This document shows positions 15,573 to 43,159 of a stretch of 64,000 nt of DNA, piece after piece. Where the stretch lies: NCBI RefSeq assembly GCF_015277855.1, contig NZ_CP063812.1:3906001-3970000 (forward strand), read 5' to 3'. How positions within the stretch are numbered: position 1 is the stretch's first letter; every line of letters begins with the position of its first letter. This DNA is from Microbacterium cremeum. GTDB lineage: Bacteria; Actinomycetota; Actinomycetes; Actinomycetales; Microbacteriaceae. The notes under the pieces are model-generated. The model had not been told where the DNA came from. It saw nothing but the letters and a program-made list of their open reading frames with translations, and did no database searches. The position numbers were made by a program, and so were the translations under genes.

Positions 15573-16811
15573 CTATGCCGTCCAGGACGATCGGCCGAAG
15601 CGCTCCCAGCGCTCGACGACGCGCGGGGACGCGGCATCCGTTCCTGGTTCGTACACCGCGCGGCCCTCGATGAACACGCGCTCGACGTGCGAATCGACCG
15701 CGAGCGGGTCTCCCGACCACACCACGATGTCGCCGTCTCGGCCGACGTCGAGGGCGCCGACGCGCTCGTCGAGTCGCAGGATCTCGGCCGGGTTCGTCGT
15801 CAGCGCCTGCAGCGCCGTCGCCGACGGCAGACCTTCGCGCACCGCGAGGATGGCCTGCAGCCGGATGTGGTCGATGGGCACGACGGGGTGGTCGGTCGTG
15901 ATCGCGACCTTCACGCCTGCCTCGGCGATCAGCGCGAGGTTTCCGATCGCCCGGTCGCGCAGCTCGACCTTCGACCGCGAGGTCAGCATCGGGCCGAAGA
16001 TCACCGGGATCTGCTTCTCCGCCAGCACGTCTGCGATCTTGTGCGCCTCGGTCCCGTGGTTCACGACCAGCGTGTAGCCGAACTCCTCGGCGATGCGGAT
16101 CGCCGTCGCGATGTCGTCGTGCCGGTGGCAGTGCTGATCCCACACCAGCTCGCCGGCCAGCACCGCGGCCAGGGTCTCTTTTCCGAGGTCGCGCTCGAAC
16201 GGCTCGCCCTTCTCGGTGGCCGCGTCCCGCTTCTCGGCATAGGTGCGGGCCGCGACGAACGCTTCGCGGAGGACGGATGCCACGCCCAGGCGTGTCGACG
16301 GAGTCTGCTTCTTGTCGCCGTACACGCGCTTCGGATTCTCGCCGAGCGCGGACTTGACCGACACGTCGGCGGCGAGGATCTGCTCGTCGACGGTGCGTCC
16401 GCCCCACGTCTTGATCGCGACGGTACGTCCGCCGATGGGGTTGCCCGATCCGGGCTTGACGACGGCCGTGGTCACTCCGCCGCGCAGGGCGTCGCGGAAC
16501 CCGACCTCCTCGATGTCGATCCCGTCGAGGGCGCGGAAGCGCGCGCCGTTCGGGTCGGTCATCTCGTTGGTGTCTTCACCCGACCAGCCCTCGCCGTCTT
16601 CGTGCACGCCGAGGTGCCCGTGCGACTCGACGAATCCGGGAACCACCCAGCGACCTGAGGCGTCGACGATGTGCGCTCCGTCGGGCACCGGGGTCTCGGG
16701 CCCGCCGATCGCGGTGATGACGCCGTCCGTGACGACCACGGTGCCGCCGGGGATCGGGTCGGAGCTGACGGGAACGAGGTGACCGCCGGTCACGGCGAGG
16801 ATGCGAGCCAT
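15573..16811 (-). CDS. Amidohydrolase, imidazolonepropionase-like
   Basis: 412 residues with the layout of metal-dependent hydrolases: an N-terminal beta-sandwich strand, the metal motif HGHLG near residue 64 after WVVPGFVES, further metal-site histidines in QHCHRHDD and VVNHGTEAHK, and a catalytic Asp in ITTDHP. The C-terminal GDIVVWSGDPL is typical of imidazolonepropionase/prolidase-like amidohydrolases. It would hydrolyse a cyclic amide, imide or dipeptide-like substrate in the cytoplasm; the substrate is unknown. A GGAGG-type site precedes the ATG. It begins 10 bp after the ECF ATPase gene and could be read through from that operon. Confidence 0.85.
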   Translation of the reverse strand: MARILAVTGGHLVPVSSDPIPGGTVVVTDGVITAIGGPETPVPDGAHIVDASGRWVVPGFVESHGHLGVHEDGEGWSGEDTNEMTDPNGARFRALDGIDIEEVGFRDALRGGVTTAVVKPGSGNPIGGRTVAIKTWGGRTVDEQILAADVSVKSALGENPKRVYGDKKQTPSTRLGVASVLREAFVAARTYAEKRDAATEKGEPFERDLGKETLAAVLAGELVWDQHCHRHDDIATAIRIAEEFGYTLVVNHGTEAHKIADVLAEKQIPVIFGPMLTSRSKVELRDRAIGNLALIAEAGVKVAITTDHPVVPIDHIRLQAILAVREGLPSATALQALTTNPAEILRLDERVGALDVGRDGDIVVWSGDPLAVDSHVERVFIEGRAVYEPGTDAASPRVVERWERFGRSSWTA

Positions 16812-16820
16812 TCCTCCAAC

Positions 16821-18338
16821 CTACGATGCGCGACCCGGGGGAGTCGTCGAGCCGAGCGGGCGGCACCGCGCCTCCTGCGCCGATCGATCTTCCGTGGACG
16901 GCCCCCACCGGGCATGCGGTGGGGAGAGAATGAGCTGTCGATCCGCCGCCAGCGCGAGCAGGTCGTCGTCGTGGCTGATGAGAATCACCACGGCACCGTC
17001 AGCGGCGACCTGCCGGATCTGCTCAGAGATGGAGGCGAGGTGACGGCGGTCGACGCCCGAACTGGGCTCGTCGAAGATCACGATCCTCCGCCCCGCGACG
17101 CGCGCGGCCGCCAACACCAGGCGTTGCTGCTGACCGCCCGACAGCGAGAGCGGGTGACGGTCGGCCAGATGGTCGAGATCCAGGGCCTTCAGCATGTCGC
17201 GCACGCCGGTAGCGGACCCAGCATCCGCACGTGCCAACTCGATCTCGGCACGCACGCTATCGGTGAACAGCTGTCGCTGCGCGTCCTGCATGACGACCGC
17301 CGTGGCCCGCTGACGCGCGCCACGGTTGAGGACTCTCCCGTCGAGGCGCACGGTGCCGCTGCTGCGCTGCAGCCCGGACACGACGCGGCCGAGCGTCGAC
17401 TTCCCGGCTCCGTTCACGCCGGTGATGGCGTTGACGGATCCGGCGTTGAACATGAGGCGGTCGATCTCGAGCACGAGCCGGCCGCCGAGCCGGCAGCGGA
17501 TTCCGTCGAGCTCGAGCGTCCCGGGTGAGATGCTGCCCGCCGGCGCAGGTGAGGCGATGCTCGCCCCGGCGGCCGGCAGCAACGGGAGCTCCGGCGTCGC
17601 GACCTCACCGCGTAGGCCCTCGGCCTTGAGGGTCTCGTCGGACACACCCCGAAACTGCTCCGCCGTCCACTCCCGGTCGATGCGCCCGTCACGCATGACG
17701 ATGACACGGTCCACCAAATGCTCCAGGTACCGCAGGCGATGCTCGGCGACGACGATCGTCACCCCGTCGGCTTTGAGCGCCCCGAGGGTGTCGGCGAGTC
17801 GGTGCACGGCGTCGGCCGAGAGATTGGAGCTGGGCTCATCGAGCAGGAGCACCTTGGGCTCATGCGCCGTCGCCGCGGCGATGGCGACCTGCTGCTGCTG
17901 ACCGCCTGAAAGCTGCTGCAGGCGCTGCCCCAGCGGCACCGCGCCGGCAAGGCGCTGCATCAGCGCGTCGACCCGCTCGCGCATTCGGGCGACGGGAAAG
18001 CCGAGGTTCTCCATCGCGAAGGCGAGCTCCTCGCGCGCGCTGTCGGTGAAGAACTGGCGGCGCGGATGCTGAAGCACGGTGCCCGAGAGCGCTCCGATCT
18101 CGTCCAGCTCGGCGCCGGTGGTCGCAATCCCGCCGACGAACGCCGTGCCGGTGAGCACCCCTGCGTCGTGAAAGTGAGGAATGAGCCCGTTCATGACACG
18201 GAGCGCGGTCGACTTTCCGGACCCGCTCGCGCCGCACAGAACGACGAACTCGCCGGGCCGAACGTGCAGATCGAGATCGCTGAGGCTCGGTGTCTCGGCG
18301 TGCGGATACGACCACGTGAGTTGTTCGAGTCGGATCAT
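16821..18338 (-). CDS. ECF transporter fused A1-A2 ATPase
   Basis: 505 residues containing two ABC ATPase domains in tandem. The first has Walker A GASGSGKST, signature LSGGQQQQ and Walker B VLLLDEPSS; the second has GVNGAGKST, LSGGQQQR and IVIFDEPSS. This is the fused EcfA form common in actinobacteria. The ATG at 18338 overlaps the EcfT stop by 4 bp (ATGA), which fixes the start. It powers group II energy-coupling-factor uptake together with the EcfT and S-component genes directly upstream. Both domains keep all catalytic motifs. Confidence 0.93.
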   Translation of the reverse strand: MIRLEQLTWSYPHAETPSLSDLDLHVRPGEFVVLCGASGSGKSTALRVMNGLIPHFHDAGVLTGTAFVGGIATTGAELDEIGALSGTVLQHPRRQFFTDSAREELAFAMENLGFPVARMRERVDALMQRLAGAVPLGQRLQQLSGGQQQQVAIAAATAHEPKVLLLDEPSSNLSADAVHRLADTLGALKADGVTIVVAEHRLRYLEHLVDRVIVMRDGRIDREWTAEQFRGVSDETLKAEGLRGEVATPELPLLPAAGASIASPAPAGSISPGTLELDGIRCRLGGRLVLEIDRLMFNAGSVNAITGVNGAGKSTLGRVVSGLQRSSGTVRLDGRVLNRGARQRATAVVMQDAQRQLFTDSVRAEIELARADAGSATGVRDMLKALDLDHLADRHPLSLSGGQQQRLVLAAARVAGRRIVIFDEPSSGVDRRHLASISEQIRQVAADGAVVILISHDDDLLALAADRQLILSPPHARWGPSTEDRSAQEARCRPLGSTTPPGRAS

Positions 18339-30415: not shown

Positions 30416-31279
30416 TCATGCTGGCAGACCGTTACTCAAACTGCAACTGCTTTCATGTCCGTTGAAAGTGATCTTCATCTTCTGAGTAGCGAAGTCCACC
30501 AGTTCCACCATCGACATGGCGCGGCAGATCGCAGCGCCGATGTTCGTGGTGCGGACGTGTCCGCCCGAGTCGAAGTCCCGGCCGATCGACGCGAATGCCG
30601 CGTCGTCAACGACCGGCTCCTCCCATGTCACCCACTGTCGCGCGCCCGAGACAGCGAGCGGCGCTCCATTGCGTACGAGCGCCCGCTCCCCGCCCTCCGC
30701 GGCACGGTGTTCGGCGAGGTGAAGGCTCGTGCACTTGTCGAATCCGACTCCGAGCAACACGACCACGGCGTCGAGCGCGTAGAGCCGAGCCAGCGGCGAC
30801 GACTCACCGAATGGAGAGTTCAGTTCATGGACGTGGGTGATCTCCCGCGCCTCCAAACCTGCTGCGGCAAACGAGCGATGCGGATGCGGACTGCGGTGGG
30901 CGTCGGGCTGGAGGCGAAACAGTTCCGCAACGGCACCCATCGAGCGGGTCGGCGTGAGCACCTCGTCGAACGCCGGCAGGCCCTGCCGCACCTGCGCTCG
31001 CGCGGCAGGGCCGAGCGCGGGATCGTCTAGGAAGTCCGGATCGCATAGTTGCCAGCTCTGTGAAGGCATGACAACGGTGCCGAATGGGCCGACCGCCTCA
31101 CGCAGCGCCGCGATCACGGTCTGCTCGCCTCCGGCGACCACACCGAAGCTCGACAATGACGCATGCACGAGAACGACCTGGCCGGGTTCGACGCCCAGGG
31201 TCGCCAGGCCGGTGCGCAGCTCGGCCCCCGTGACGATTGTTGAACTGAATGCACTGTCAGCTCCTGCAAGACTTTTCAT
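30416..31279 (-). CDS. AAC(3)-family N-acetyltransferase-like protein
   Basis: 287 residues matching the aminoglycoside 3-N-acetyltransferase fold: VLVHASLSSFG and GTVVMPSQSW near the N-terminus, the acetyl-CoA region SPHPHRSFAAAG, and LLGVGFDKCTSLHLAEHR with the family catalytic-region His. AAC(3) enzymes acetylate 2-deoxystreptamine aminoglycosides; related proteins (YokD/FrbF type) use other amines, so resistance cannot be assumed. It lies between malE and a divergent LacI-like gene. No promoter or strong ribosome site is clear; starts other than the ATG at 31279 were not in frame. Confidence 0.8.
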   Translation of the reverse strand: MKSLAGADSAFSSTIVTGAELRTGLATLGVEPGQVVLVHASLSSFGVVAGGEQTVIAALREAVGPFGTVVMPSQSWQLCDPDFLDDPALGPAARAQVRQGLPAFDEVLTPTRSMGAVAELFRLQPDAHRSPHPHRSFAAAGLEAREITHVHELNSPFGESSPLARLYALDAVVVLLGVGFDKCTSLHLAEHRAAEGGERALVRNGAPLAVSGARQWVTWEEPVVDDAAFASIGRDFDSGGHVRTTNIGAAICRAMSMVELVDFATQKMKITFNGHESSCSLSNGLPA

Positions 31280-32238: not shown

Positions 32239-34176
32239 TCAGAGCCCCGCCCGGGCCAGGTCGATGACGCGCCCCGCGTCAGCTTGAGGACTCCGGGCGA
32301 CGGTTGCCGTGTCCTCAACGACGCGCCACACGGCGAAGGCGAGCCCCGTTGACGTGATGCGGACCTCGTCTGCGAACTGCTCTGCGGCTGCTTCGCCGAA
32401 AGTGACGGCCGCCTCGCCCACAGCGCCGAAAGCGCCACAGGGGAGCTGAACGGTGGCAGCGCCGCTGGATGCGAAAACCAGTACCACCTCTTCGCTGGCC
32501 TCCCGGACGAAGATCATGCATTCGTCGTCTGCGTGCAACCACCGCAGCCCGCCGCGCTGCAGCGCTCTGGACCCTAGACGGAGCCGCGCGAGGCCGCCGT
32601 ACGCTTCGGCTAGCCGCGGCGTGTCACCCCACGGCAGCGGGGTGCGGGAGTCCTCGCCATGCGTGCCGCGCAATCCGAACTCGTCGCCGGCGAAGATCAC
32701 CGGCGTGCCCGGCAGTGTCATTGACAGGCCGGCCGCGACGATCTGCGCGGCATCATCAGCCTGCTGAGCGAATCGTGGCGTGTCGTGCGTGTCGATCGCG
32801 TTCATGGCAAGTTCCCGCACCGCCCAGGGGTAGGGCGCCGTGAAATTGCGATAGCTCTTCACGACATCGGCTGCGGAGTAGCGCGGCTCGACGCGGAACG
32901 GGATCCCGAAGTGGTGGGCGGGATCGCCGCTCGGCTGGCGGAGCCAATGCCATACGGGGCGGGTGAACGCCGAGTAGCTCATCGGCGCCTGCCATCCCTC
33001 GCCGTCGAAGTCGCCTGCGGCATCGTTGGTTGACTCGGCGTAGAGGACTCGTCCCGGAGCGGTCGTGTCCATCGTCTGTCGGACGGTGCGCTGAACATCC
33101 CGATTCAGGTCGACGTCCCTGAGGCGTCCGGTCATGTTGGCCACGTCGATACGCCATCCGTCCAAGTTGAACGGCGGCTGGAGCCACTTGGCGACCACGC
33201 TCTCCGGACCTTCGATGAATCGCCGGCGCAATGTGTCGGACCCCCAGTCCAGCTTGGGGAGCGAGGGAACTCCGTACCAGGCGACGTACTCGGTCTGCTG
33301 GGCGTTCGTCCAGTAGTAGAAGTCTGATTCCTCAGCCGACGGGTTTCCCAGCGCGGCCGTGAACCACTCGTGGGCGGCGCCGGTGTGATTGGTTGTCAGA
33401 TCACCAATCACACGCATACCGCGAGCGTGAACGGCTTCCACTAGCCGGATGAGGGCCGGGTCACCGCCGAGGAGCGGGTCGACGATGTCGAACGTCGACG
33501 CGTCGTATCGGTGGTTCGATCGGGCGGGGAAGAACGGTGTGAGGTAGATCAGGGTGACACCGAGGCGCTCGAGGTGGTCGAGGTGTTCCACGATGCCGTC
33601 CAGATCACCGCCGAACCATTGCCGAGACGTGTGGGGACCGGTAGAGATCACCGGCGCGGTCCATTCTGCGGCTTGGGCCCAGTCAGGCAATGAGCGATCG
33701 TCGGCCGCCGCGGAACGCGCGAAGCGGTCGGGGAAGATCTGATACATCACCTGCGATGCCGCCCACTCAGGAGCGGGGTCAAACGTCGTGACGCGGAAGT
33801 CCCGGCTATCCGTCGGCTCGATGCGATCTACGCCGTCTGCCGACAGCCACCAGGCATCCCCGTCGATTGTGTTGAGCAGGAACCGGTACCGGGTGACCTG
33901 GTTGGGGATTTCAAATTCGGCTGTCCACCATTCGCACCCGCCGCCTGTGCCAGTCACCGGTGCGGTAGCCGCCATCGAATGGAAGCACGGCTCTCCGTCG
34001 GAGACGACCCTGACGGCAGCTGACCCGATGCGGCCAAACTCCACGGGAACCCGCAGGCGCACCGTGTAGAGCCCACCGAGAATCGGCGTCCGGATTGGCG
34101 CATACAGTTCGGAGCCGTCGTGGTGCGGGAGCGCGTGAAGGGATGTCATTGGCAGGCTTTCTGGCTTTTCGGTCAT
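32239..34176 (-). CDS. GH13 alpha-glucosidase/neopullulanase-type enzyme
   Basis: 645 residues. An N-terminal carbohydrate-binding-like domain (residues 25-125) precedes a GH13 catalytic barrel with all four conserved regions: DLTTNH (259-264), GWRIDVAN with nucleophile D344, LYAES with acid/base E381, and AIDTHDT with the third Asp. There is no signal peptide, so it is probably cytoplasmic and cleaves imported maltodextrin, cyclodextrin or pullulan-derived oligosaccharides. The neopullulanase-like layout and the nearby MalEFG-type transporter support this. The ATG at 34149 is an alternative start. Confidence 0.88.
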   Translation of the reverse strand: MTEKPESLPMTSLHALPHHDGSELYAPIRTPILGGLYTVRLRVPVEFGRIGSAAVRVVSDGEPCFHSMAATAPVTGTGGGCEWWTAEFEIPNQVTRYRFLLNTIDGDAWWLSADGVDRIEPTDSRDFRVTTFDPAPEWAASQVMYQIFPDRFARSAAADDRSLPDWAQAAEWTAPVISTGPHTSRQWFGGDLDGIVEHLDHLERLGVTLIYLTPFFPARSNHRYDASTFDIVDPLLGGDPALIRLVEAVHARGMRVIGDLTTNHTGAAHEWFTAALGNPSAEESDFYYWTNAQQTEYVAWYGVPSLPKLDWGSDTLRRRFIEGPESVVAKWLQPPFNLDGWRIDVANMTGRLRDVDLNRDVQRTVRQTMDTTAPGRVLYAESTNDAAGDFDGEGWQAPMSYSAFTRPVWHWLRQPSGDPAHHFGIPFRVEPRYSAADVVKSYRNFTAPYPWAVRELAMNAIDTHDTPRFAQQADDAAQIVAAGLSMTLPGTPVIFAGDEFGLRGTHGEDSRTPLPWGDTPRLAEAYGGLARLRLGSRALQRGGLRWLHADDECMIFVREASEEVVLVFASSGAATVQLPCGAFGAVGEAAVTFGEAAAEQFADEVRITSTGLAFAVWRVVEDTATVARSPQADAGRVIDLARAGL

Positions 34177-34468
34177 CGATCAGACGGTGATCCCGAGAGA
34201 TTAGCAAACTCGTGCAGTCATTGAAATCAGTTGCAAGCTCGTAGCAGACTGCCGTGTGGCTATACGAGAAGCCGAACCGCGGCGAGGCCGGACATACAGT
34301 CGAACCGGCTGTTGTCAGAGTGCGTCGGATGCGTCAGACTCACGTTCGTGAAACGTCTTGCAGATGCTGGTACGGTGGTGGCCCGCGTGATCGCCGGTGG
34401 TGACTTCATTCGTGAAGCGTCAAAACCTATGCGGAGAGCATGCTGCCCAGTCAGCGAATGGAGCGCGC
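34177..34468. other. Divergent intergenic region, no gene
   Basis: This 292-bp gap separates the divergent GH13 and nucleotidyltransferase-like genes. It includes partial LacI half-sites such as TTGCAAGC near 34232 but no complete palindrome. I see no RNA gene. It marks the shift from the sugar locus to the accessory island. Confidence 0.5.
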
Positions 34469-35257
34469 ATGACCGCGTCTGAGCGCTTCGATGCAATGAG
34501 CGCGGCTCTAGCGACCTCCGTGGGGGAGCGTGAGGGTCTCATCGGCCTCGTGCTGCTCGGTTCCGCATCGGATGAGGCGCGTGGTCGCCGTGACGAGTGG
34601 TCGGACCACGACTTCTTCACACTCATTGAAACGGGGCGAGGCGCCGAGATTCGACCCGATCTGTCGTGGCTTCCCGACTACGACCGCCTGGTGCTCACGG
34701 CGAGGGAAGGCGACATCGGCTTCGTCGCCCTGTACGACGATGCGCACATCTTCGAGTTCGCCCTGGCGGACGCTGAGGAAGTCGACGGCGCCCGCGCCGG
34801 GGACGCCGCGGTCGTCGTCGATGACAAGTCGGGAACGACAGCCAGGTTGCTGGCACGGGCGCGGGCACGCGCCAGCGAGGAGGACCGGTTCGACCCGGCG
34901 AACGACGTGCGCCTTGTGCTCGTGAAGCTGCTGATCGGCGTCGGCAGGGTGCGGCGTGGCGAGGCGCTCAACGGCAACGCATTCATCAGGCAGTGGGCGG
35001 TGCAGCTTCTGGTGCGCGCCATTAGGGGGCGGTTCGCCGCAGCATCCACCGCTCTCCGCGACACGAACGATCCGATGCGGCGTTTCGAGCTCGACTTCCC
35101 GATCTGGGGCGCGCGCATCGCCGCAGCGCTCGACCTGCCGATCGAGGAGTCTGCACTGAACCTGTACCAACTCGCGCGTCAGATCCTTGAGCCCGGCTGG
35201 AGCGAGTTCCCTTCACGAGCGGCCGACGTCGTCGCTCTGCGCCTCGGTTGGACCTGA
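34469..35257 (+). CDS. Nucleotidyltransferase-fold protein
   Basis: 262 residues. LVLLGSASDEARGRRDEWSD, followed by HDFFT, provides the G-S-x(n)-S-D-x-D signature of polymerase-beta-like nucleotidyltransferases, with a longer-than-usual insert between the two parts. The C-terminal half is helical. The ATG at 34469 was chosen because GGAG precedes it at good spacing. The fold is shared by aminoglycoside adenylyltransferases and by MNT-type antitoxins. No HEPN partner is adjacent, so a MNT-HEPN toxin-antitoxin pair is not supported; substrate is unknown. Confidence 0.7.
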   Translation: MTASERFDAMSAALATSVGEREGLIGLVLLGSASDEARGRRDEWSDHDFFTLIETGRGAEIRPDLSWLPDYDRLVLTAREGDIGFVALYDDAHIFEFALADAEEVDGARAGDAAVVVDDKSGTTARLLARARARASEEDRFDPANDVRLVLVKLLIGVGRVRRGEALNGNAFIRQWAVQLLVRAIRGRFAAASTALRDTNDPMRRFELDFPIWGARIAAALDLPIEESALNLYQLARQILEPGWSEFPSRAADVVALRLGWT

Positions 35258-35570: not shown

Positions 35571-36692
35571 TCAGCTGACCGCGCTAGTCCCAGATTTCAG
35601 CAGTCGGAGTTCCAGGACGCGCTGCCACTTCACCACGTTGGTCGCGTCGTCCGGCCGGAGGGTGCGCATGTGGGCGAGGCGGTTGCGTATCGGCATGATC
35701 TGAGCGCCGAAGCGACGCCAGAATGCGGCGTTGAGACCGAGGTCCCCGATCTCCGTCCTGTCCTTCAGTTGCAGCAACTCCCCGAGAGAGAGCCACTCCA
35801 GTGGATCGCGAAGGTGCTTGATGGAGGTGGCGGCAAGGTATGCCTCTTCTGTCGCACGTTCCAACACCTTTTCGGTGAGGTCAGCGTTCAGGCATTGCTG
35901 CCGCCAACTCCCGCCCCACGCGGTCACTGCCCGCTTGCGGATCTCGCGGCGAATGATCCGCTCGATCTTCCACAGCCCGGCGCTGACGTCGGTTAGCTGG
36001 TGCTGGGGATCCAGGTCATCCGAGAGGACGTCATCGAGTGCTGACTTCAGGGGGACGAGATGCTTGGAGAAGTTCCAGCTTCGGGTTGCGCCGTTCGGGG
36101 CAGTGATTCCGGCTCCGTCGAGAGCCTCGAGCTCTCGCGCGGAGAGCGTGCTCAAGGCGGTTTCTCCGGTGAGCATGCTTTCGTAAAGGGCTCTGTCCAG
36201 GGACGCGCAAAGCTCCGGCCCTAGCTCGCTCAATGCCTGCCGCAGCAGAGGTGTGGGGTCCGTGCCATCCTCCACGCACGCTGGAAACCCTTCCGGTCCG
36301 TTCGATTTGACGACTGGCGCGTGCGCGAAGCTCGCGTCATCGAGGAGCGAGCTCCCCACGACTGCGGGGTATGCGATCCGAGGTGCCCTCGAGAGCAGCA
36401 CGACCCGGGTGCCCGCGTCGACGTCTGCGAAGACGCGCTCCCGCAGCGCACCCATAGCGACGTCAGGGCTGGTGACCGCGAGGTCCTCCATGTTGTCGAG
36501 GAGGAGGGTGCCTTCAACGCGCTCCCTGTCGGGCTTCATGTACGTGCGGACAGTCTGGACGGCCAGGTGGGACGAGGTCAGGGCGCGGCGGGCGGGTTCG
36601 TTGCTGGAGCCGAGTTGCAGGAACACCACCCGCAGTTGCTCAGCCTTCTGGTGGATGAGCTCCACCCACGCGGAGTAGTCGACGGCGCTCAC
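35571..36692 (-). CDS. HEPN-domain protein, probable RNase of the four-gene operon
   Basis: 373 residues. The C-terminal third is helical and ends in the HEPN ribonuclease signature RNRLAH (R-x4-H, near residues 337-342), preceded by [15 protein letters not shown] and [11 protein letters not shown]; overall it resembles the Swt1-type HEPN domain. The N-terminal half (about 1-200) contains alternating hydrophobic strands ([22 protein letters not shown]) with no family I recognise. Its ATG overlaps the stop of the IF2_N-NTPase gene by 4 bp, implying coupled synthesis and a functional pair. It is the last gene of the operon. HEPN RNases are typical effectors of defence and toxin systems; that role is inferred. 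Confidence 0.75.
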
Positions 36693-38497
36693 ACCAGCTC
36701 CAGGATGACGCTCGCCTGATACTCGCCATCGCGCTCGTATATCAAGCCAAGATCTTTGAGCCGGCGCACGGCAACGTGTTCGCTGGGGGCGAGTTCCTTG
36801 AAGTCCCCCGGGTCGTCCATCAGCAGCTCGAGCATCACTGCCTCGGTCGCGTAGTAGCGCTTGACGTGCTGGATCATCTCTTCGATGTTCCCCTGGACGC
36901 GGCTCTTCCAGTCGTCCAGTTCGGTCAGCACAGCCGAGCGGATCATGGTGCGTTGGAACACATCGGTAGGGAGGTGTCGCACGACGGCAGAGCTGAGGTT
37001 CCGGTAGAGATACGCGTGGCCTCCGGATGCCTCGTGGAGAGCTTCCAGGGCGCCAGGCTCGATCTGTATCCCCATTTTTCCGCCCACGGTGCTCGCAAGC
37101 TCATCAGCTTCCTCACGTTCCAACGGCTTCACATAGACGGCTTTGGCCCACGAGAACAGGGGATTCGGACGTCCATAGAGCCGGCCGGCCTCGACGATGG
37201 CGCTGGTGAGGCCGGACAGTACGAACGTGAAGTTCTCGGACTCTTGAACGATGCTGCGAAGTGCGGACAGCAGCTGTGCGACGCGTGGCATGTCGCCTTC
37301 AGCGATGTCGATCCGGTCTGCCGGGGTCAGGTACTCGATCTCGTCCAGGAGCAGGAGAATCCGATAGCCGTCCTTCCACAGGTGTTTGAGGATCACCTGC
37401 AGGGCGTTCTTCAACTCAAGGATGGACGGCCGATCGGACAGCTGAGATAGCTCCTGGGTGCGCAGCTTGTGCGTCTTGAGTTCGGCGATGAGCCGGCGGC
37501 GCAGATCGCTGACGATGTCGTCGGTGGGATCCTCTGGCGGCGAGGGGAAGGCTTCAAGATCCATCAGCACGGTCACAATGTGGTCGTCGTGAAGTTCTTC
37601 CTTCAGTTGCATGAGGATGCTCGTCTTGCCTGACTTCCGCAGCCCGAACACGCCCGTCACCTGCTGGTTGAAGACGTCGTCCCGCAGAGACTGCAGCAGG
37701 GTGCGGCGGCCGAAAAAGCTCGCTCCAAACACTGGGGTCGTCATGTAGAACAGGTCCCGCGCATAGATATGGTTGCGCAGCAAAGTGATCAGGGACAGCT
37801 CATCCTCGTCGTCGATCAGGAAGGGGATGGCGAGCTTCGACGGTCGAGACCAGTCGTTGAGCTTGATGCCCAGTCGCTGATCCGGGGACCACATGAAGAA
37901 GATGTCTGGCGTGACCGGCTGGTCCTTCTTCGCCAGCTCGCGAGCGGCCGCCTCGAACGTGCGGACTTGCAGGTCTTCGTGGGGACTGTAGAACAGCATC
38001 ACCTCACGCGTGAAACCGAACCCAGCTTCGATTGCGCCGCTGAATCGCACGTGCACGATCACGCAGTCTTTGAAGCCGTCCTGTTTGCATGGTCCGGCGT
38101 ACACGACCTGTGACCCGAGACTGCGCAATGCGTCTAGATGATCGCCGAAGGCGGGGAACCGCTGCCTGGTCTTCTGGATGTTTTTGAGCAGATCGGGGTG
38201 ACGCGGCACGGGAACTGCGCCTGCGCGCCACCCGTGCTGACGGGACGACGGCGCGGTGGGGTCGAAGGTGGGGCTGTCCACGTACGGGTCGACGTGATCA
38301 CGGCGCACGGGTGAGGGGCGGGGCGCGGGCCGAGGTGTGCGCACTCCGAAAGTCGCTCTCACTTTCGCGGCGACCGGCGCTTCGATGGTGGACGATGGGC
38401 TCTTGACGTACTCGCCGAGCAGCTTCAAACGCGCAAGCACCGTTGCGGCGTCGACACCGAGCTCGCTCGCGAGTTCGTGAACTCGAATCTTGGCCAT
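36689..38497 (-). CDS. IF2_N-domain fused to P-loop NTPase
   Basis: 602 residues. Residues 1-51 are a close match to the IF2 N-terminal domain ([19 protein letters not shown], ending SSTIEAPVA). A Pro-rich linker (52-98) and an unclassified region (100-250) follow. The NTPase begins with FFGRR (261-265), Walker [10 protein letters not shown] (285-293), Walker [10 protein letters not shown] (380-388) and a sensor-like VLSG (426-429), typical of STAND/AAA_16-type ATPases; the C-terminus (545-602) looks like a winged helix. The ATG at 38497 opens the IF2_N domain directly; a longer frame starts at 38530. It overlaps the HEPN gene by 4 bp. In true IF2 the domain is RNA/ribosome-associated, so ribosome sensing is a tempting but unproven idea. 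Confidence 0.85.
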
Positions 38498-38549
38498 GAA
38501 TCTCCTCTGGGAACCCTCTTGTGCCAACATCCTTGCGCGCCGCTGCCCG

Positions 38550-39095
38550 TCAGGTCGCGCACCATGTCAACCAGATTGCCCGGGTCTGCACGTGGGCCAG
38601 TTTCTCTCGATGACCGCCGAGCTCGCGGACGTAGTCGTAAGCGTCGTCTGCCGTCAGCAGGCCGATGCGTGCGGCGAGTCGAAGCAGATCCCAGGTCGTG
38701 TAGGTGCGGATGCCGTGCTCCTGGGCGCGTTGGGCGGCAGACCGGTCGTCGGTGACGAAGAAGGCGCTCAGGCCGCGGTTGGTGATGATCGAGATCGTCT
38801 CCGCTTCGCCGAGATGGCGAGTGGGCGCGTCGCCGGGAGCGGCCAGGGAGGTGCGGATCGTGGTGGTGTCGACGATTTCCTGACCAGTCTGCAATCGGAG
38901 CGGCTCACCGAAGATGGTGTGCGCCTGGGTCATCGTCTCAAGGCCCGGTTCGTTGGCGCTGCGGTCGCATTCGCCGGCGACGGTTCCGCACCATCTGCCG
39001 TTGTCACGGACCAGGGTGGTCAAGAGATCCATCCGTTGGATTCGCGCGAAGCGCACGAGGACGGTGTTATCGGGGAGCAGGAGATGTGTGGTCAC
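38550..39095 (-). CDS. PIN-domain nuclease
   Basis: 181 residues. Acidic residues fall in the PIN order: D9 (LLLPDNTVL), E42 (AGE), E97/E99 (HLGEAET) and D116/D117 (FVTDDRS), with the hydrophobic strands between them. PIN proteins usually cleave RNA (tRNA, rRNA or mRNA). The GTG start overlaps the ImmA-gene stop by 4 bp (GTGA). XRE-ImmA/PIN gene pairs look like toxin-antitoxin or defence modules. The NTPase gene begins 52 bp downstream. A long upstream extension in the same frame overlaps the ImmA gene and was rejected. Confidence 0.8.
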
Positions 39096-40189
39096 GTGGT
39101 CACGAACCCGAGTGCCCGCGCAAGCTCGTCGATATCCGCGTCGGGGGTGTCGGGTTCGTCGATCTCGATCTCGTCCTCGTCCACGTCCAGCATCCACGCC
39201 AGGGTCGCCTTGGGCAGGCGGCCCTGGGAGATGAGTTCGACGTGGGCCGCCTGCAGCTCCAGCGGGAAACGCCGGGAGGCGGCCGCGTCCATGCGTGCGG
39301 TGATCTGATCGGTGCCGTCGTGGTTCCAGCTGGGGAACCGGCGCAGGATCTTCTGTGTCGTCCAGCCCAGCATTTGGTCGACGGCGGGTGATGTCGGACA
39401 GCGCAGCAGGGCGAGCCGGCGTCGAAGCGCGTCGGACGACACTCCCCATTCCCACAGTTTCGCGGCGATCAGATCCCCGGATGCCGAGGTCCAGTCGATG
39501 TGTTGGATGACGCTGCGAGGCAGCAGAAGTTCCGCTGCGAACGCGTTGGCTGACGTCTCTTGCGTATCGTTCTCGCCCCGGGTGGTCGGCTCCGGGGTGT
39601 TGGCGTGGCCGAGTGCGACGTGGCCGAGCTCATGGGCGAGGGACCAGTTCTGATGGAACCAGTTACCGGTTTCGTTGAGGATGATGACCACCCGGTCGGT
39701 GATCGTGGCGGAGCAGGCGTTGCGCAGACCGCCCAGTCGGATGACGTCGATTCGGTAGACCTCGGATAGCCGCTCCGCGAAGGTGCGGACGAACGCGTCA
39801 CCTAATGCAGCCCGGACGGCATCCGCATCCGCTGGAACATTTATCGACTTGCTGGACAACTCGGCCTGCCGGTAGGCGAGGGACACTCTCTCGACGGTCG
39901 ACCGTAGGTCGTTCCAGTCAGCGTGACGGTCCCCCGTGTCGTGGTCAAACTCGTGACGAGCGACCACAAGGGCCTCCGCCGGGTCACGCTCACCGGTGGC
40001 CAGCCAGTACATGGAGGTGTTCAGCACCTCGGACAGGGCCGCGAGCTCGGCAGCGGAGAACCCGCGGCTGCCGTTCACGGCGCGCGAGAACGCGTCGGGA
40101 GTCATCCCGATCTCCTCCGCAATGCTCGCGTGGGTGCGCCCGGGGAGGACCTCGCGAACGCGCGCACGGACGCGCTCCCCAACCTCCAT
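39092..40189 (-). CDS. XRE helix-turn-helix plus ImmA/IrrE metallopeptidase
   Basis: 365 residues. An XRE DNA-binding domain (about 1-65; HASIAEEIGMTPDAFSRAVNG) precedes an ImmA/IrrE peptidase with zinc motif HELGH (186-190) and a downstream E-x-x-A-x-x-F-A-x-x-L-L-x-P segment (E211-P224). ImmA/IrrE proteins cleave partner repressors in stress or mobile-element control. The ATG at 40189 was chosen because a near-ideal promoter ends just upstream (-35 TTGGGA, -10 TAGCAT), making the transcript leaderless. It is the first gene of the four-gene operon and probably autoregulates through the palindrome over that -35. Confidence 0.88.
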   Translation of the reverse strand: MEVGERVRARVREVLPGRTHASIAEEIGMTPDAFSRAVNGSRGFSAAELAALSEVLNTSMYWLATGERDPAEALVVARHEFDHDTGDRHADWNDLRSTVERVSLAYRQAELSSKSINVPADADAVRAALGDAFVRTFAERLSEVYRIDVIRLGGLRNACSATITDRVVIILNETGNWFHQNWSLAHELGHVALGHANTPEPTTRGENDTQETSANAFAAELLLPRSVIQHIDWTSASGDLIAAKLWEWGVSSDALRRRLALLRCPTSPAVDQMLGWTTQKILRRFPSWNHDGTDQITARMDAAASRRFPLELQAAHVELISQGRLPKATLAWMLDVDEDEIEIDEPDTPDADIDELARALGFVTT

Positions 40190-40196
40190 AGCGACT

Positions 40197-40225
40197 ATGC
40201 TAGCAGGAATTGGGATATTCCCAAT
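40197..40225 (-). promoter_or_regulatory. Operon promoter overlapped by ATTGGGA-N3-TCCCAAT palindrome
   Basis: On the minus strand, TTGGGA (40219-40224), a 16-nt spacer and TAGCAT (40197-40202) place transcription start near 40190, at the ATG of the XRE-ImmA gene. A perfect 7-3-7 palindrome (40209-40225) covers the -35. This is what autorepression by the encoded XRE protein would look like. The divergent gene at 40260 shares the region. Confidence 0.7.
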
Positions 40226-40259
40226 CAGCTGGGTGGGGTGAGTAGCAGGGGAGCGCGCG

Positions 40260-40598
40260 TTGGAGAGCTTTGATGAGGGCCTGCGGTGCCAGGACGTGCA
40301 CTCCGGATTGCGGAACATCGACCCGAACTCGGCGATCCTGACCCCGCTGACCGGAACGCTGAAAATCGGCATGGCGGCGAGCCTGGCCGCCCTGGTCCGC
40401 GGGCAGGACGTGGTGCCCGACGCGGAGTCGCTGCGTGCTGTCGCCGCCGAGCAGCTCGATGTCAGCCCTTATGCGTTCAACGAGGTCGTCTACTCGCTGG
40501 AGCGTGCCGGGTTCGTCACGAACTCGGAGTGGGCCGTGCAGCACCCCCAATACGATCGCTCGCAGTACGGTGGCGGCTGGACTCTCGCGGACCGCTAG
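40260..40598 (+). CDS. Divergent orphan protein, probably truncated
   Basis: 112 codons from a TTG with GGGGAG 6 nt upstream. Up to about residue 87 the sequence looks like a genuine helical or winged-helix protein (LKIGMAASLAALVRGQDVV, then VSPYAFNEVVYSLERAGFV). From about 40521 the bases instead form the end of a methyltransferase remnant on the other strand, so the C-terminal 25 residues are probably accidental. It was presumably a longer gene, divergent from the four-gene operon, cut by a recombination junction. I do not recognise the family. Confidence 0.45.
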   Translation: MESFDEGLRCQDVHSGLRNIDPNSAILTPLTGTLKIGMAASLAALVRGQDVVPDAESLRAVAAEQLDVSPYAFNEVVYSLERAGFVTNSEWAVQHPQYDRSQYGGGWTLADR

Positions 40599-40985
40599 AG
40601 CCTCTCGCAGAGTACAAATGTCAGCGAGAGTCGACGCAGCGTAACCCCACTCCCAAAACTCCCCTTCAGGTACGGAGTCGGGATGACTCCCCAAGCACGC
40701 ATCGAGCTCAGCGAGCACCTCATCGACCGTCGCCTCGGCAACCTTCGAAGCCGCAATAGCCGCCGCCACAGGACTCGCGTCGATCCCCACCGAGGAGAGC
40801 CCCAATGTCCGAGCCGCGAAGAGGGTCGTTCCACGCCCACAGAATGGATCGAGTACCCGATCGGTCGGAGCAGCCTCGCGAAGAACATCGAGCGGGAACG
40901 ACAGCGGGAACATCGTGAAGTACGGGCAGGCCGTATTCAGTCGCTGTTGCACAAGCGACAGCTCGCGCACCGCCGCTTGCTCCAC
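40521..40985 (-). pseudogene. Truncated DNA methyltransferase
   Basis: About 155 residues survive. They include RLNTACPYFTMFPLSFPLDV, motif I DPFCGRGTT followed by SSVGIDASPVAAAIAASK, and VLRAIVLGVLHGPLRV at the cut end. After about 40521 the frame continues only as the antisense of the divergent orphan gene. The catalytic D-P-P-Y-type motif, expected after this point in the gene order of this class, is absent, so the enzyme should be dead. The true start is uncertain (GTG at 40985 or 40970). Confidence 0.7.
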
Positions 40986-41094
40986 GCCCTCATAATACGG
41001 AGAACCCGCAGCGCTGACCGCACATCTGCGGGCAGCGCGCCCACGGCGTCTGCTCCGAAGTTGCCGCGCGGAGTGGGTGCGTAGCCCCGCGATC

Positions 41095-41166
41095 GTTCCA
41101 CGCGACGTGTCGGATCCGACAAGTAGCCGACATCTCGATCTGGAATCCGACACTTTCACGTGGAAC
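41095..41166. mobile_element. IS-like inverted-repeat end remnant beside dnaB
   Basis: Two imperfect inverted repeats of about 24 bp face each other here: GTTCCACGCGACGTGTCGGA and three more bases (41095-41117), and its counterpart ending TTTCACGTGGAAC (41142-41166). TGTCGGATCCGACA (41108-41121) is a perfect palindrome, and the TGTCGG core occurs again between the arms. Clustered TGTCGGAT repeats are typical of IS21/IS481-type ends. No transposase frame is present. The element starts 7 bp after the dnaB stop and probably marks the island boundary. Confidence 0.5.
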
Positions 41167-41172
41167 CTACAA

Positions 41173-42546
41173 CTACCCGAAGTCCCCGGGGGCCATGTCG
41201 GTGAAGCGGGAGAAGTGGCCCTGGAAGGCGACCGTGATGGTGTCGGTGGGGCCGTTGCGGTGCTTGGCGACGATGAGGTCGGCCTCGCCGGCGCGCGGGG
41301 AGTCCTTCTCGTACGCGGCCTCGCGATGCAGCAGCACGACCATGTCGGCGTCCTGCTCGATCGAGCCCGATTCGCGGAGGTCGGAGAGCGCGGGTTTCTT
41401 GTCGGCGCGCTGCTCGGGACCACGGTTCAGCTGCGACAGCGCGATGACCGGGCACTGCAGCTCCTTCGCGAGGAGCTTGAGCGCCCGGGAGAACTCCGAG
41501 ACCTCCTGCTGGCGCGACTCGACGCGCTTGCCCGATGTCATGAGCTGCAGGTAGTCGATGACGACCATCTTCAGGCCAGCGCGCTGCTTGAGCCGGCGGC
41601 ACTTCGCCCTGATCTCGACGAGCGTCATGTTGGGGCTGTCGTCTATATAAAGAGGAGCGTCGTTGATGCGACCGCGGGTCGCGGCGATCGTCGTCCAGTC
41701 ACGCGAGTCGAGCGTGCCCTTTCGCATCGACTGCAGCGGCACCGCCCCCTCGGCACTCATCAGACGCATGGCGATCTCGCTGCGCCCCATCTCGAGCGAG
41801 AAGAAGATCGTCGGCATGTCGTGCTTGATCGCCGCGGCGCGTGCGAAGTCGAGAGCCAGGGTGCTCTTACCCATCGCAGGCCGCGCGGCGATGATGATCA
41901 TCTGCCCGGGGTGCAGGCCGTTGGTCAGCTGGTCGAGTCCCGCGAAGCCGGTCGGGATGCCGGTCATCTGGCCGTCGCGACCCCGCGCCGCCTCGATCTC
42001 TTCGACCGCGGCATCCACCGCGATCGTGAGCGGCACGTAGTCCTCGGCCGCCTCCGCACCCGTCACCGAGTAGATCTCGGCCTGCGCGTTGTTGACGAGG
42101 TCGAGCGCCTCGCCCTGGCCGGAGTAGCCCATCTGCACGATGCGGGTGCCGGCCTCGACGAGGCGCCGCAGCAGCGCACGCTCCGACACGATCGAGGCGT
42201 AGTAGCCGGCGTTCGCGGCGGTCGGCACGATCGACGTGAGCGTGTGGAGATAGTCCGCGCCGCCGGCGCGCTGCAGTTCGCCGGTCTTGATGAGCTCGTC
42301 GGTGACCGCGACGACGTCAGTGGGCTCACCGTGCGAGTAGAGCGTGAGGATGGCCTCGAAGATCAGCTCGTGCTTGGGGATGTAGAAGTCGGTGCCGCGC
42401 AGCGTCTCGATGACGTCGGCGACGGCGTCCTTCGACAGCAGCATGCCGCCGAGGGCGCTCTGTTCGGCGAGCAGGTCGTGCGGGGGAGTGCGCTCGTACT
42501 CACGGGGACCCCCCATGCGCTCCTCGGAGATGTCGGCGATCGACAT
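41173..42546 (-). CDS. dnaB: Replicative DNA helicase DnaB
   Basis: 457 residues. The N-terminal DnaB domain (LLAEQSALGGMLL) and C-terminal RecA-like ATPase with Walker A ARPAMGKST, Walker B VVIDYLQLM and an arginine-rich finger (ESGSIEQDADMVVLLHR) are intact. It unwinds DNA at the replication fork as a hexamer. The ATG at 42546 begins MSIADISEE after a GGAGGA. The last codons run up to the IS-like end at 41166, but the coding region is complete. Upstream lies a cluster of DnaA-box-like sites. Confidence 0.96.
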   Translation of the reverse strand: MSIADISEERMGGPREYERTPPHDLLAEQSALGGMLLSKDAVADVIETLRGTDFYIPKHELIFEAILTLYSHGEPTDVVAVTDELIKTGELQRAGGADYLHTLTSIVPTAANAGYYASIVSERALLRRLVEAGTRIVQMGYSGQGEALDLVNNAQAEIYSVTGAEAAEDYVPLTIAVDAAVEEIEAARGRDGQMTGIPTGFAGLDQLTNGLHPGQMIIIAARPAMGKSTLALDFARAAAIKHDMPTIFFSLEMGRSEIAMRLMSAEGAVPLQSMRKGTLDSRDWTTIAATRGRINDAPLYIDDSPNMTLVEIRAKCRRLKQRAGLKMVVIDYLQLMTSGKRVESRQQEVSEFSRALKLLAKELQCPVIALSQLNRGPEQRADKKPALSDLRESGSIEQDADMVVLLHREAAYEKDSPRAGEADLIVAKHRNGPTDTITVAFQGHFSRFTDMAPGDFG

Positions 42547-43159
42547 AGGCTGCGCGTCCTCCAGATCGTTCGTTCCATCGTCCGAGTTCGGGGCGACGTG
42601 CGCCGCTCGGCGCGCCGCGGCGTGCGAGCACGCGCGACCGACAGGATGCCTCGGCATTCTGCTCGTCGACACGCTCCTGCGCGTGAATCCGATAGTCGCC
42701 GCACTGCTGCAGCGCGCCCCCCGAATGGGCCGAGACCCAAGGTAAGGACGGCCTCCGACACTCGCAACACGGCCTGTGGATAACTGTGTGGAAAGACTGC
42801 GAGAAACGCCGACGCACCTGTGAACAACCACTGTGGACAACTGCCGGGTTTTCTCGTGCATGCACCTTGAAAAGGGCTTCTGATCTGGCACTGCGCGTTC
42901 CACAGCCTGTGGAGGAGGATGTGATTGAAGTCCCTCTTTAAGGTTTTGCTCCCGGCCGGCACCTGTGCACAATTCCGGGGACAGACGCGGCTCCGCGCGC
43001 ACATGAGCATGCTCCGTGCGCGCGAACACCGACAACACGCGGATCTCGACCGTCGAGTACCTAGACACACCCCGCCGAGGAGGGTAACGTCTGAGGTCCA
43101 GGCACCCTCACGCACGTCCGTTCCGGAGCGTGCGGCGTTGTTCGTCGTGGGAGGTGAAC
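42547..43159. other. 613-bp non-coding region between dnaB and a divergent secreted protein
   Basis: No credible gene lies here; frames are shadows. The region holds a DnaA-box-like cluster (42775-42972) and a 9-bp perfect stem (CGCGCGCAC at 42994-43002 and GTGCGCGCG at 43016-43024). Promoters for dnaB (minus) and the secreted protein gene (plus) must be inside. Confidence 0.6.
42775..42972. promoter_or_regulatory. DnaA-box-like cluster upstream of dnaB
   Basis: TGTGGATAA (42775-42783) is a perfect DnaA box on the minus strand (TTATCCACA). Near matches follow in the same direction: TGTGAACAA (42819-42827), TGTGGACAA (42832-42840) and TGTGCACAA (42964-42972). The clustering suggests DnaA binding, either as transcriptional control of dnaB or as a DnaA-titration site. 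Confidence 0.5.

What the first reader, a model, noticed from the sequence alone, without database searches (positions are those of the whole stretch)
35571..40189. Four-gene ImmA-PIN-IF2_N/NTPase-HEPN operon, candidate new defence system
Seen: four genes on one strand, linked by GTGA and ATGA overlaps and a 52-bp gap, encode an XRE-ImmA peptidase, a PIN nuclease, an IF2_N-P-loop NTPase and a HEPN protein with RNRLAH. Known: PIN and HEPN are RNA-cleaving toxin domains, STAND-like NTPases act as switches, and ImmA proteins cleave repressors. Inference: a sensor NTPase that may survey translation and release one or both RNases, with the peptidase as gate. The locus lies in an island beside dnaB. 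I know of no named system with this set.
Basis: partly seen in the sequence, partly recalled or inferred. Interest (0 to 1): 0.87.

Follow-up and report, generated by a model that had tools for sequence, protein, structure and literature searches.

The report
ATPase–RNase defence pair beside toxin–antitoxin genes
The four neighbouring genes are two separate units: a known kind of toxin-antitoxin-like pair, and an apparently undescribed two-gene ATPase plus RNA-cutting protein, probably an anti-phage switch, found patchily in actinobacteria.

Summary
The four genes are real and correctly placed, but they are not one system. XRE-ImmA + PIN is a known toxin-antitoxin-like arrangement (Makarova 2009). 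Of 19 other Microbacteriaceae genomes with this PIN, 17 have XRE-ImmA upstream and 0 show the NTPase or HEPN gene nearby. It has its own operator-like palindrome, exact in 5 of those 17.

The IF2_N-NTPase and HEPN genes form a separate pair in Actinomycetota. HEPN directly follows the NTPase in 18 of 20 close loci (the other two end at a contig edge); ImmA/PIN are found in 0 of 20.

The partner is an AAA+-fold domain without a P-loop, followed by a HEPN-like domain. R-x4-H is kept in 120 of 121 distinct ordinary partners and lost in all 8 that carry a C-terminal PD-(D/E)XK-like domain shared with a Lamassu-type LmuA. That is an effector swap and the best evidence that the pair is a nuclease-releasing switch.

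Trigger, target and anti-phage activity are inferred. My literature searches found no description of the pair.

The parts
39092..40189 (-). XRE-ImmA/IrrE (M78) protein, 365 aa; repressor/protease of module 1
   Evidence: PF06114 2.9e-13, HTH_3 5e-5; HELGH in the translation
38550..39095 (-). PIN-like RNase toxin of module 1, 181 aa, GTG start overlapping the ImmA stop
   Evidence: Invariant D9, E42, E97, D116, D117 in 17 aligned sequences; PF11848 in most listed relatives; XRE-ImmA upstream in 17 of 19 other genomes with a match
40210..40224 (.). Operator-like palindrome TTGGGA-N3-TCCCAA, about 20 bp upstream of the ImmA start
   Evidence: Only copy in the 3.98-Mb genome; 0 expected in the window; among 158 loci only at ImmA-PIN loci, six genomes including this one
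36689..38497 (-). IF2_N + middle domain + ORC/STAND-type ATPase + winged helix; switch of module 2
38342..38497 (-). IF2_N domain of the NTPase (residues 12-63 in the 613-aa numbering)
   Evidence: PF04760 1.6e-13; solved IF-2 N-termini 5.8e-7; present in 17 of 20 loci
35571..36692 (-). HEPN partner, 373 aa: AAA+-fold domain without P-loop (about residues 4-138), then HEPN-like effector
35670..35687 (-). HEPN-like R-x4-H motif RNRLAH
   Evidence: Kept in 120 of 121 distinct untailed relatives, 0 of 8 tailed ones
41173..43068 (-). dnaB, chromosomal flank of the variable region
   Evidence: PF03796 1.7e-105; congener homology stops at its 3' end

Best explanation
Two independent mobile modules lie side by side in a variable region next to dnaB. 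Module 1 (38550-40224) is a toxin-antitoxin-like pair: XRE-ImmA probably binds the palindrome in front of its own gene and controls the PIN RNase. Module 2 (35571-38497) is a two-protein switch. An ORC/STAND-type ATPase with an N-terminal IF2_N domain holds a partner made of an ATPase-like domain without a P-loop, joined to a HEPN-like RNase. On a signal, most likely phage infection, ATP binding or hydrolysis rearranges the complex and frees or dimerises the HEPN domain. HEPN then cuts RNA and stops growth. Shown: the separateness of the modules, the pairing, the domains, purifying selection and the effector swap. Inferred: physical contact of the two proteins, the activation step, RNA as target, phage as trigger, and that the palindrome is bound by XRE-ImmA.
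For: Pairing: HEPN overlaps or follows the NTPase in 18 of 20 close loci (2 at contig ends); ImmA/PIN in 0 of 20. Genus: NTPase matches (E<=1e-25) in 14 of 366 Microbacterium genomes; 11, the window's included, are at least 49% identical, of which 10 have HEPN adjacent and 1 is at a contig end; the 3 at 28-32% have no HEPN hit. Among 140 clustered neighbours no family occurs at more than 3 of 20 loci. Selection against M. hominis: dN/dS 0.036 (NTPase), 0.10 (HEPN). Effector swap: R-x4-H in 120 of 121 untailed, 0 of 8 tailed partners; the tail is 50% identical over 195 aa to a LmuA whose upstream gene looks SMC-like; PADLOC LmuA hits 4 members of A2, which holds 4 tailed proteins; in the genus it hits 6 of 361 genomes: 3 exactly at tailed partners of this NTPase, 2 LmuA-like genes, 1 weak unrelated place. 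Fold: the ATPase resembles BrxC and Avs3 among others, the partner's N-domain AAA+ proteins. Neighbours include PADLOC families such as MADS, PD-T4-6 and Avs1b (no control).
Against: No activity data exist for either module. The window's HEPN protein has no Pfam hit; HEPN_Swt1 matches 2 of 26 relatives, best 19.8 bits against a cut-off of 27.5. The HEPN fold was not tested by structure: the VIA list covers residues 2-163 only. In M. hominis a PIN remnant precedes the NTPase (57 of 80 nt), so PIN before the pair predates that split; co-transcription in this strain is not excluded. The swap is one event on the tree, so it counts once. IF2_N is absent from 3 of 20 loci. IMG/VR held only 2 distant NTPase matches. 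The NTPase model is middling (pLDDT 75.6, pTM 0.46) and its matches have rmsd mostly 5-7 A.
Confidence: 0.66

Rival explanations
1. One integrated four-gene system in which ImmA protease gates PIN and HEPN under an NTPase sensor.
For: Same strand, GTGA overlaps and a 52-bp gap; PIN remnant upstream of the NTPase in M. hominis shows the order is not brand new.
Against: 0 of 20 NTPase-HEPN loci have ImmA/PIN; 0 of 19 other genomes with this PIN show NTPase/HEPN nearby; separate palindrome; ImmA-PIN lost in the nearest relative while the pair stayed intact.
Confidence: 0.04
2. The NTPase-HEPN pair is a selfish addiction or stress-response module rather than anti-phage defence: the ATPase acts as antitoxin or stress switch of the HEPN RNase.
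For: Two overlapping genes, patchy distribution (11 of 366 Microbacterium), HEPN is a common toxin fold (PMC3710099, passages).
Against: The 600-aa Walker-intact ATPase is much larger than usual antitoxins (recalled); the alternative effector is shared with Lamassu-type LmuA; defence-type neighbours (no control).
Confidence: 0.2
3. The HEPN-like domain is not a nuclease; the partner is an RNA-binding adaptor and the ATPase remodels nucleic acid or ribosomes.
For: No curated HEPN match for the window protein; HEPN domains judged inactive are known (PMC3710099, passages).
Against: R-x4-H in 120 of 121 untailed partners, and lost in all 8 that carry a nuclease-like tail.
Confidence: 0.1

Closest known systems
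XRE-COG2856 (ImmA/IrrE) + PIN toxin-antitoxin-like operons (Makarova et al. 2009, PMC2701414, passages read)
   Same: Fused XRE and zinc-peptidase gene in an operon with a PIN gene
   Different: Nothing basic; this adds a palindrome shared by six genomes and a PF11848-type PIN in Microbacteriaceae
Lamassu (LmuA effector + LmuB SMC-like; PMC10586767, passages read)
   Same: The variant partner proteins (8 found) carry the same C-terminal domain as a Microbacterium LmuA-like protein (50% identity over 195 aa)
   Different: No SMC protein found; the switch is an ORC/STAND ATPase; the window's own partner lacks the domain and uses HEPN
BREX BrxC/BrxB (PMC12839542, passages read)
   Different: No PglZ or PglX found; HEPN effector fused to the inactive domain
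HEPN-DUF499 ATPase (Ava_2192; type-1 BR / Hma systems; PMC3710099 and PMC12839542, passages read)
   Same: HEPN (Swt1/Abi2 class) coupled to an AAA ATPase
   Different: There HEPN is fused to DUF499 with methyltransferase and helicase; here separate genes and no DUF499 hit
Avs / STAND sensors (recalled)
   Different: No long C-terminal sensor; effector in a second protein; N-terminal IF2_N

Membership tests
XRE-COG2856 + PIN toxin-antitoxin-like module | XRE HTH fused to an M78 zinc peptidase with HExxH | tested here: met
   PF01381 and PF06114 above cut-off; HELGH
XRE-COG2856 + PIN toxin-antitoxin-like module | PIN-type gene next to it, conserved across genomes | tested here: met
   XRE-ImmA directly upstream of PIN in 17 of 19 other genomes (5 of 5 Microbacterium, 12 of 14 further Microbacteriaceae)
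XRE-COG2856 + PIN toxin-antitoxin-like module | Own operator / autoregulation | tested here: inconclusive
   Palindrome in 6 of 10 ImmA-PIN loci examined, exact in 5 of the 17 other ImmA-PIN genomes; binding not tested
XRE-COG2856 + PIN toxin-antitoxin-like module | PIN toxic and neutralised by its neighbour | not testable with these tools
   Needs expression
HEPN superfamily (Swt1-like) | R-x4-6-H motif | tested here: met
   RNRLAH; 120 of 121 distinct untailed relatives
HEPN superfamily (Swt1-like) | Match to PF18731 above the curated cut-off | tested here: not met
   Window protein no hit; 2 of 26 members of A2 at E<=0.1, best 19.8 of 27.5 bits. Called HEPN-like here, not filed in PF18731
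Lamassu | SMC-like LmuB beside the effector | tested here: not met
   Among 20 window ORFs scanned with Pfam the only SMC_N hits are two ABC transporters below cut-off at 19.8-23.6 kb; a crude motif scan of L009, L013, L015 gave no convincing SMC
Lamassu | LmuA effector | tested here: not met
   Own genome 0 matches at E<=1e-10 to the one LmuA model that hits the tails; window protein no LmuA hit at E<=1
BREX | PglZ and PglX with BrxC/BrxB | tested here: not met
   No such Pfam hits in the 20 window ORFs scanned at E<=0.01
HEPN-DUF499 (BR type 1 / Hma) | DUF499 ATPase | tested here: not met
   No DUF499 hit for the NTPase at E<=1
Avs (STAND sensor nucleases) | STAND ATPase followed by a long C-terminal sensor (recalled) | tested here: not met
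   Protein ends at residue 613 just after the winged-helix region; NCBIfam Avs5 13.5 bits against cut-off 1000
PADLOC candidate PDC-M34 | PDC-M34B plus its partner gene | tested here: inconclusive
   PDC-M34B E 0.002 for the window protein, and 9 of 26 members of A2 at E<=0.001; no PDC-M34A hit for the NTPase; what the partner of PDC-M34B is was not seen

The most novel reading that the evidence does not exclude
A new two-protein defence family of Actinomycetota in which an active ORC/STAND ATPase with an IF2_N domain docks on the ribosome or initiation complex, senses phage takeover of translation, and through a pseudo-ATPase adaptor releases an interchangeable effector: a HEPN RNase in most members, a Lamassu-type PD-(D/E)XK nuclease in others.
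Probability: 0.22. Interest if true: 0.82.

Novelty: new variant of a known kind. Interest (0 to 1): 0.57.

Why it matters
The pair would add a compact, actinobacterial NTPase-nuclease system to the defence catalogue. It also offers a natural experiment: the same kind of ATPase switch is paired with either an RNase-like domain or a Lamassu-type nuclease, and the RNase site is gone wherever the nuclease tail is present. That makes it directly testable whether STAND-like switches are effector-agnostic, and whether an IF2_N domain lets a defence ATPase watch translation. For annotation, it shows that the four-gene 'operon' should be split.

Tried and rejected
1. Four-gene system: rejected on co-occurrence.

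2. IF2_N as an obligatory sensor: weakened. 3 of 20 loci (L014, L016, L021; one clade) lack it but keep the pair.

3. Homology of the partner with the about 400-450-aa AAA partners of distant NTPases (L031 type): looked similar by eye ('GSPL' region), but the profile comparison was not significant, so not used.

4. Solved relatives of the HEPN partner or of the tail: none at a useful E-value. PIN against PDB only chance-level. Identity of the tail as PD-(D/E)XK rests on the GR[AV]D...EVK motif (pattern recalled) and the LmuA match; Pfam has no hit for the tailed proteins. The review I read places the LmuA effector domain at the N-terminus and calls the C-terminal domains variable, possibly docking parts, so that the tail is the enzyme is not settled.

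5. Phage-borne origin: only 2 distant NTPase matches and 1 PIN match in IMG/VR.

6. Foldseek search of the NTPase model was never accepted; only VIA-align was used. The middle domain (about residues 110-256) has no assigned fold; the VIA list hardly tests it. In 9zll the chain that matches the partner (F, 96 residues) could be BrxB or the PglZ N-terminus; the call does not say, so I do not name it.

7. Literature: searches showed no paper that I could recognise from its listing as describing an IF2_N NTPase with a HEPN partner. Passages were read in PMC3710099, PMC2701414, PMC7159879 (only reference-list matches), PMC12839542 and PMC10586767; all other papers, PMC10440598 included, were seen only in listings.

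Dropped or partial rows: one search listed 120 of 488 hits and one search listed 120 of 247. 81 of 145 neighbours were scanned with PADLOC (25 of 62 families shown, no control); 140 of 145 were clustered. For the 14 further Microbacteriaceae PIN loci only about 1.5 kb on each side was seen; G127's PIN lies 332 bases from a contig end, but that genome has no NTPase match at E<=1e-25.
Full report
WHAT IS THERE. The window is G000:C1:3906001-3970000 of a single-contig 3.98-Mb genome. Its congeners are Microbacterium: several G-handle contigs have the same lengths as named Microbacterium contigs (inference). Four genes lie on the minus strand: XRE-ImmA 39092-40189, PIN 38550-39095, IF2_N-NTPase 36689-38497 (ATG after GAGGAGATTC; the longest ORF starts at 38530), HEPN partner 35571-36692. 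Both overlaps are GTGA and the PIN-NTPase gap is 52 bp. GC is 0.62-0.66 from about 33 to 42 kb, against about 0.69 at the start and 0.71-0.75 at the end of the window. In congeners, alignments over 150 bp end at the dnaB 3' end in the 9 fetched stretches that run on past it. In G130, genes matching window 13.2-15.5 kb sit about 3 kb from dnaB, so much of 15.5-41.2 kb looks variable; that stretch of G130 also holds matches to window 51.8-53.3 kb, so the comparison is not a clean empty site. G280 has a second, partial copy of the dnaB 3' end 11 kb away, which suggests an integration site.

TWO MODULES, NOT ONE. NTPase relatives in genome contigs: 20 close loci (L003-L022, 48-95% identity except L018 at 44%). 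HEPN directly follows in 18; in L006 and L020 the contig ends. ImmA or PIN were found in 0 of 20. In the whole genus the NTPase (E<=1e-25) is in 14 of 366 genomes: 11 at 49% identity or more (window included), 10 of them with HEPN and 1 at a contig end; 3 at 28-32% without HEPN. PIN (E<=1e-10) is in 6 of 366, and only the window's genome has both. The 5 other Microbacterium PIN loci all have XRE-ImmA upstream. In 398 Microbacteriaceae genomes PIN is in 15 including the window's own: of the other 14, 12 have XRE-ImmA, one is broken, one has none detectable, and none has NTPase or HEPN within about 1.5 kb.

HISTORY. The nearest NTPase-HEPN pair, M. hominis L003, aligns over window 35575-38629: the pair plus 130 bp upstream, which includes a decayed 3' end of PIN in the same frame (57 of 80 nt; best ungapped match at 9,500 other positions of L003: 38). 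So PIN once stood before the pair in that ancestor too, and the pair outlived ImmA-PIN there. NTPase and HEPN differ by dN/dS 0.036 and 0.10. They are maintained genes.

MODULE 1. XRE-ImmA + PIN is the arrangement that Makarova et al. [quoted passage not shown] Added here is a palindrome, TTGGGA-N3-TCCCAA, at 40210-40224. It is unique in the genome, absent from shuffles, and among 158 fetched loci occurs only at ImmA-PIN loci of six genomes, this one included; 6 of 10 loci examined have it, and 12 of the 17 other ImmA-PIN genomes lack an exact copy. I read it as the XRE operator (inference).

EFFECTOR SWAP. Among 129 partners with distinct cores (database hits and genome loci together), 121 have no long tail and 120 of these keep R-x4-H; 8 have a tail of about 207 residues (L100 cut by the locus end) and all 8 have lost it (K-x4-R, or E-x4-F). 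Seven tails show GR[AV]D...EVK, the PD-(D/E)XK pattern (pattern recalled); for the eighth, L100, one search finds the LmuA match in that genome at that place. The tail of P0209 is 50% identical over 195 aa to a LmuA-like protein in Microbacterium G276, whose upstream gene looks SMC-like with two CxxC pairs (read by eye). The N-terminal parts do not match. In 361 genomes of the genus the LmuA model hits six: three tailed partners (G192, G234, G300), two LmuA-like genes (G276, G090) and a weak place in G184 away from its NTPase. On a tree of 28 NTPases the tailed group lies on one side of one branch (100/99), so this is one event. P0102 and P0106 were taken as partners of P0209 and P0203 because the contig lengths agree. 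The simplest reading is that R-x4-H is the working site of ordinary partners and became dispensable once another nuclease was attached. Against it: the review I read sees LmuA C-terminal domains as possible docking parts.

CONTEXT. No neighbour family is found at more than 3 of 20 loci (140 neighbours clustered). Neighbours include PADLOC families MADS, PDC-S39/S48/S68, PD-T4-6, Avs1b and type IV RecD (81 scanned; no control genomes were scanned). Range: Actinomycetota of nine families among the rows of the tree, patchy within the genus searched, as expected for mobile defence genes.

MECHANISM. BREX offers the structural analogy: an ORC-type ATPase (BrxC) and an AAA/STAND-fold protein without Walker motifs (BrxB; PMC12839542, passages). 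Here the ATPase-like partner carries the effector. ATP-driven change in the complex would expose or dimerise the HEPN domain, which cuts RNA. The trigger is unknown; IF2_N makes translation or the ribosome the first place to look (inference, about one in five).

NOVELTY. I found no named system with an IF2_N NTPase and this partner in Pfam, NCBIfam or PADLOC or in the library searches named under Tried and rejected. NTPase-HEPN couplings as such are known (DUF499-HEPN, STAND-HEPN; PMC3710099, PMC12839542, passages), so I call it a new variant of a known kind.

Noticed in passing
window 40200-41170 (-): 5' part of a DNA methyltransferase-like gene (DPFCGRGTT; weak NCBIfam hits, CcrM 7.5e-5) apparently running into unrelated sequence between ImmA and dnaB: probably a remnant of an earlier insertion.
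   Followed up: partly
L139 (G280) 4373-4904 and 15854-17220: A second 535-bp copy of the dnaB 3' end lies 11 kb from dnaB, suggesting that the dnaB 3' end can be an integration site in Microbacterium.
   Followed up: partly
L031, L033, L036, L048, L052, L062, L077, L081: Distant NTPase relatives are followed by a ~400-450-aa partner family, most with a P-loop, and with an invariant C-terminal DRY...LHDR motif: possibly a parallel two-ATPase family with another effector.
   Followed up: partly
L024 9020-12825: Fimbriimonadales pair: cold-shock + TPR + STAND-like protein followed by an AAA protein ending in a HEPN-like RNSLAH.
   Followed up: partly
L160 (G276), L161 (G090): LmuA-like genes preceded by an SMC-like gene: two Lamassu-type loci in Microbacterium.
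   Followed up: partly
window 30416-31279 (-) and 32239-34176 (-): AAC(3)-like N-acetyltransferase (PF02522 6e-75) and an alpha-amylase family protein in the same variable stretch.
   Followed up: no
window 34397-35257 (+): 286-aa gene pointing towards the HEPN gene, no Pfam or NCBIfam match.
   Followed up: no
L153/L158 (G590): PIN relative broken into two overlapping frames without a detectable ImmA neighbour.
   Followed up: no
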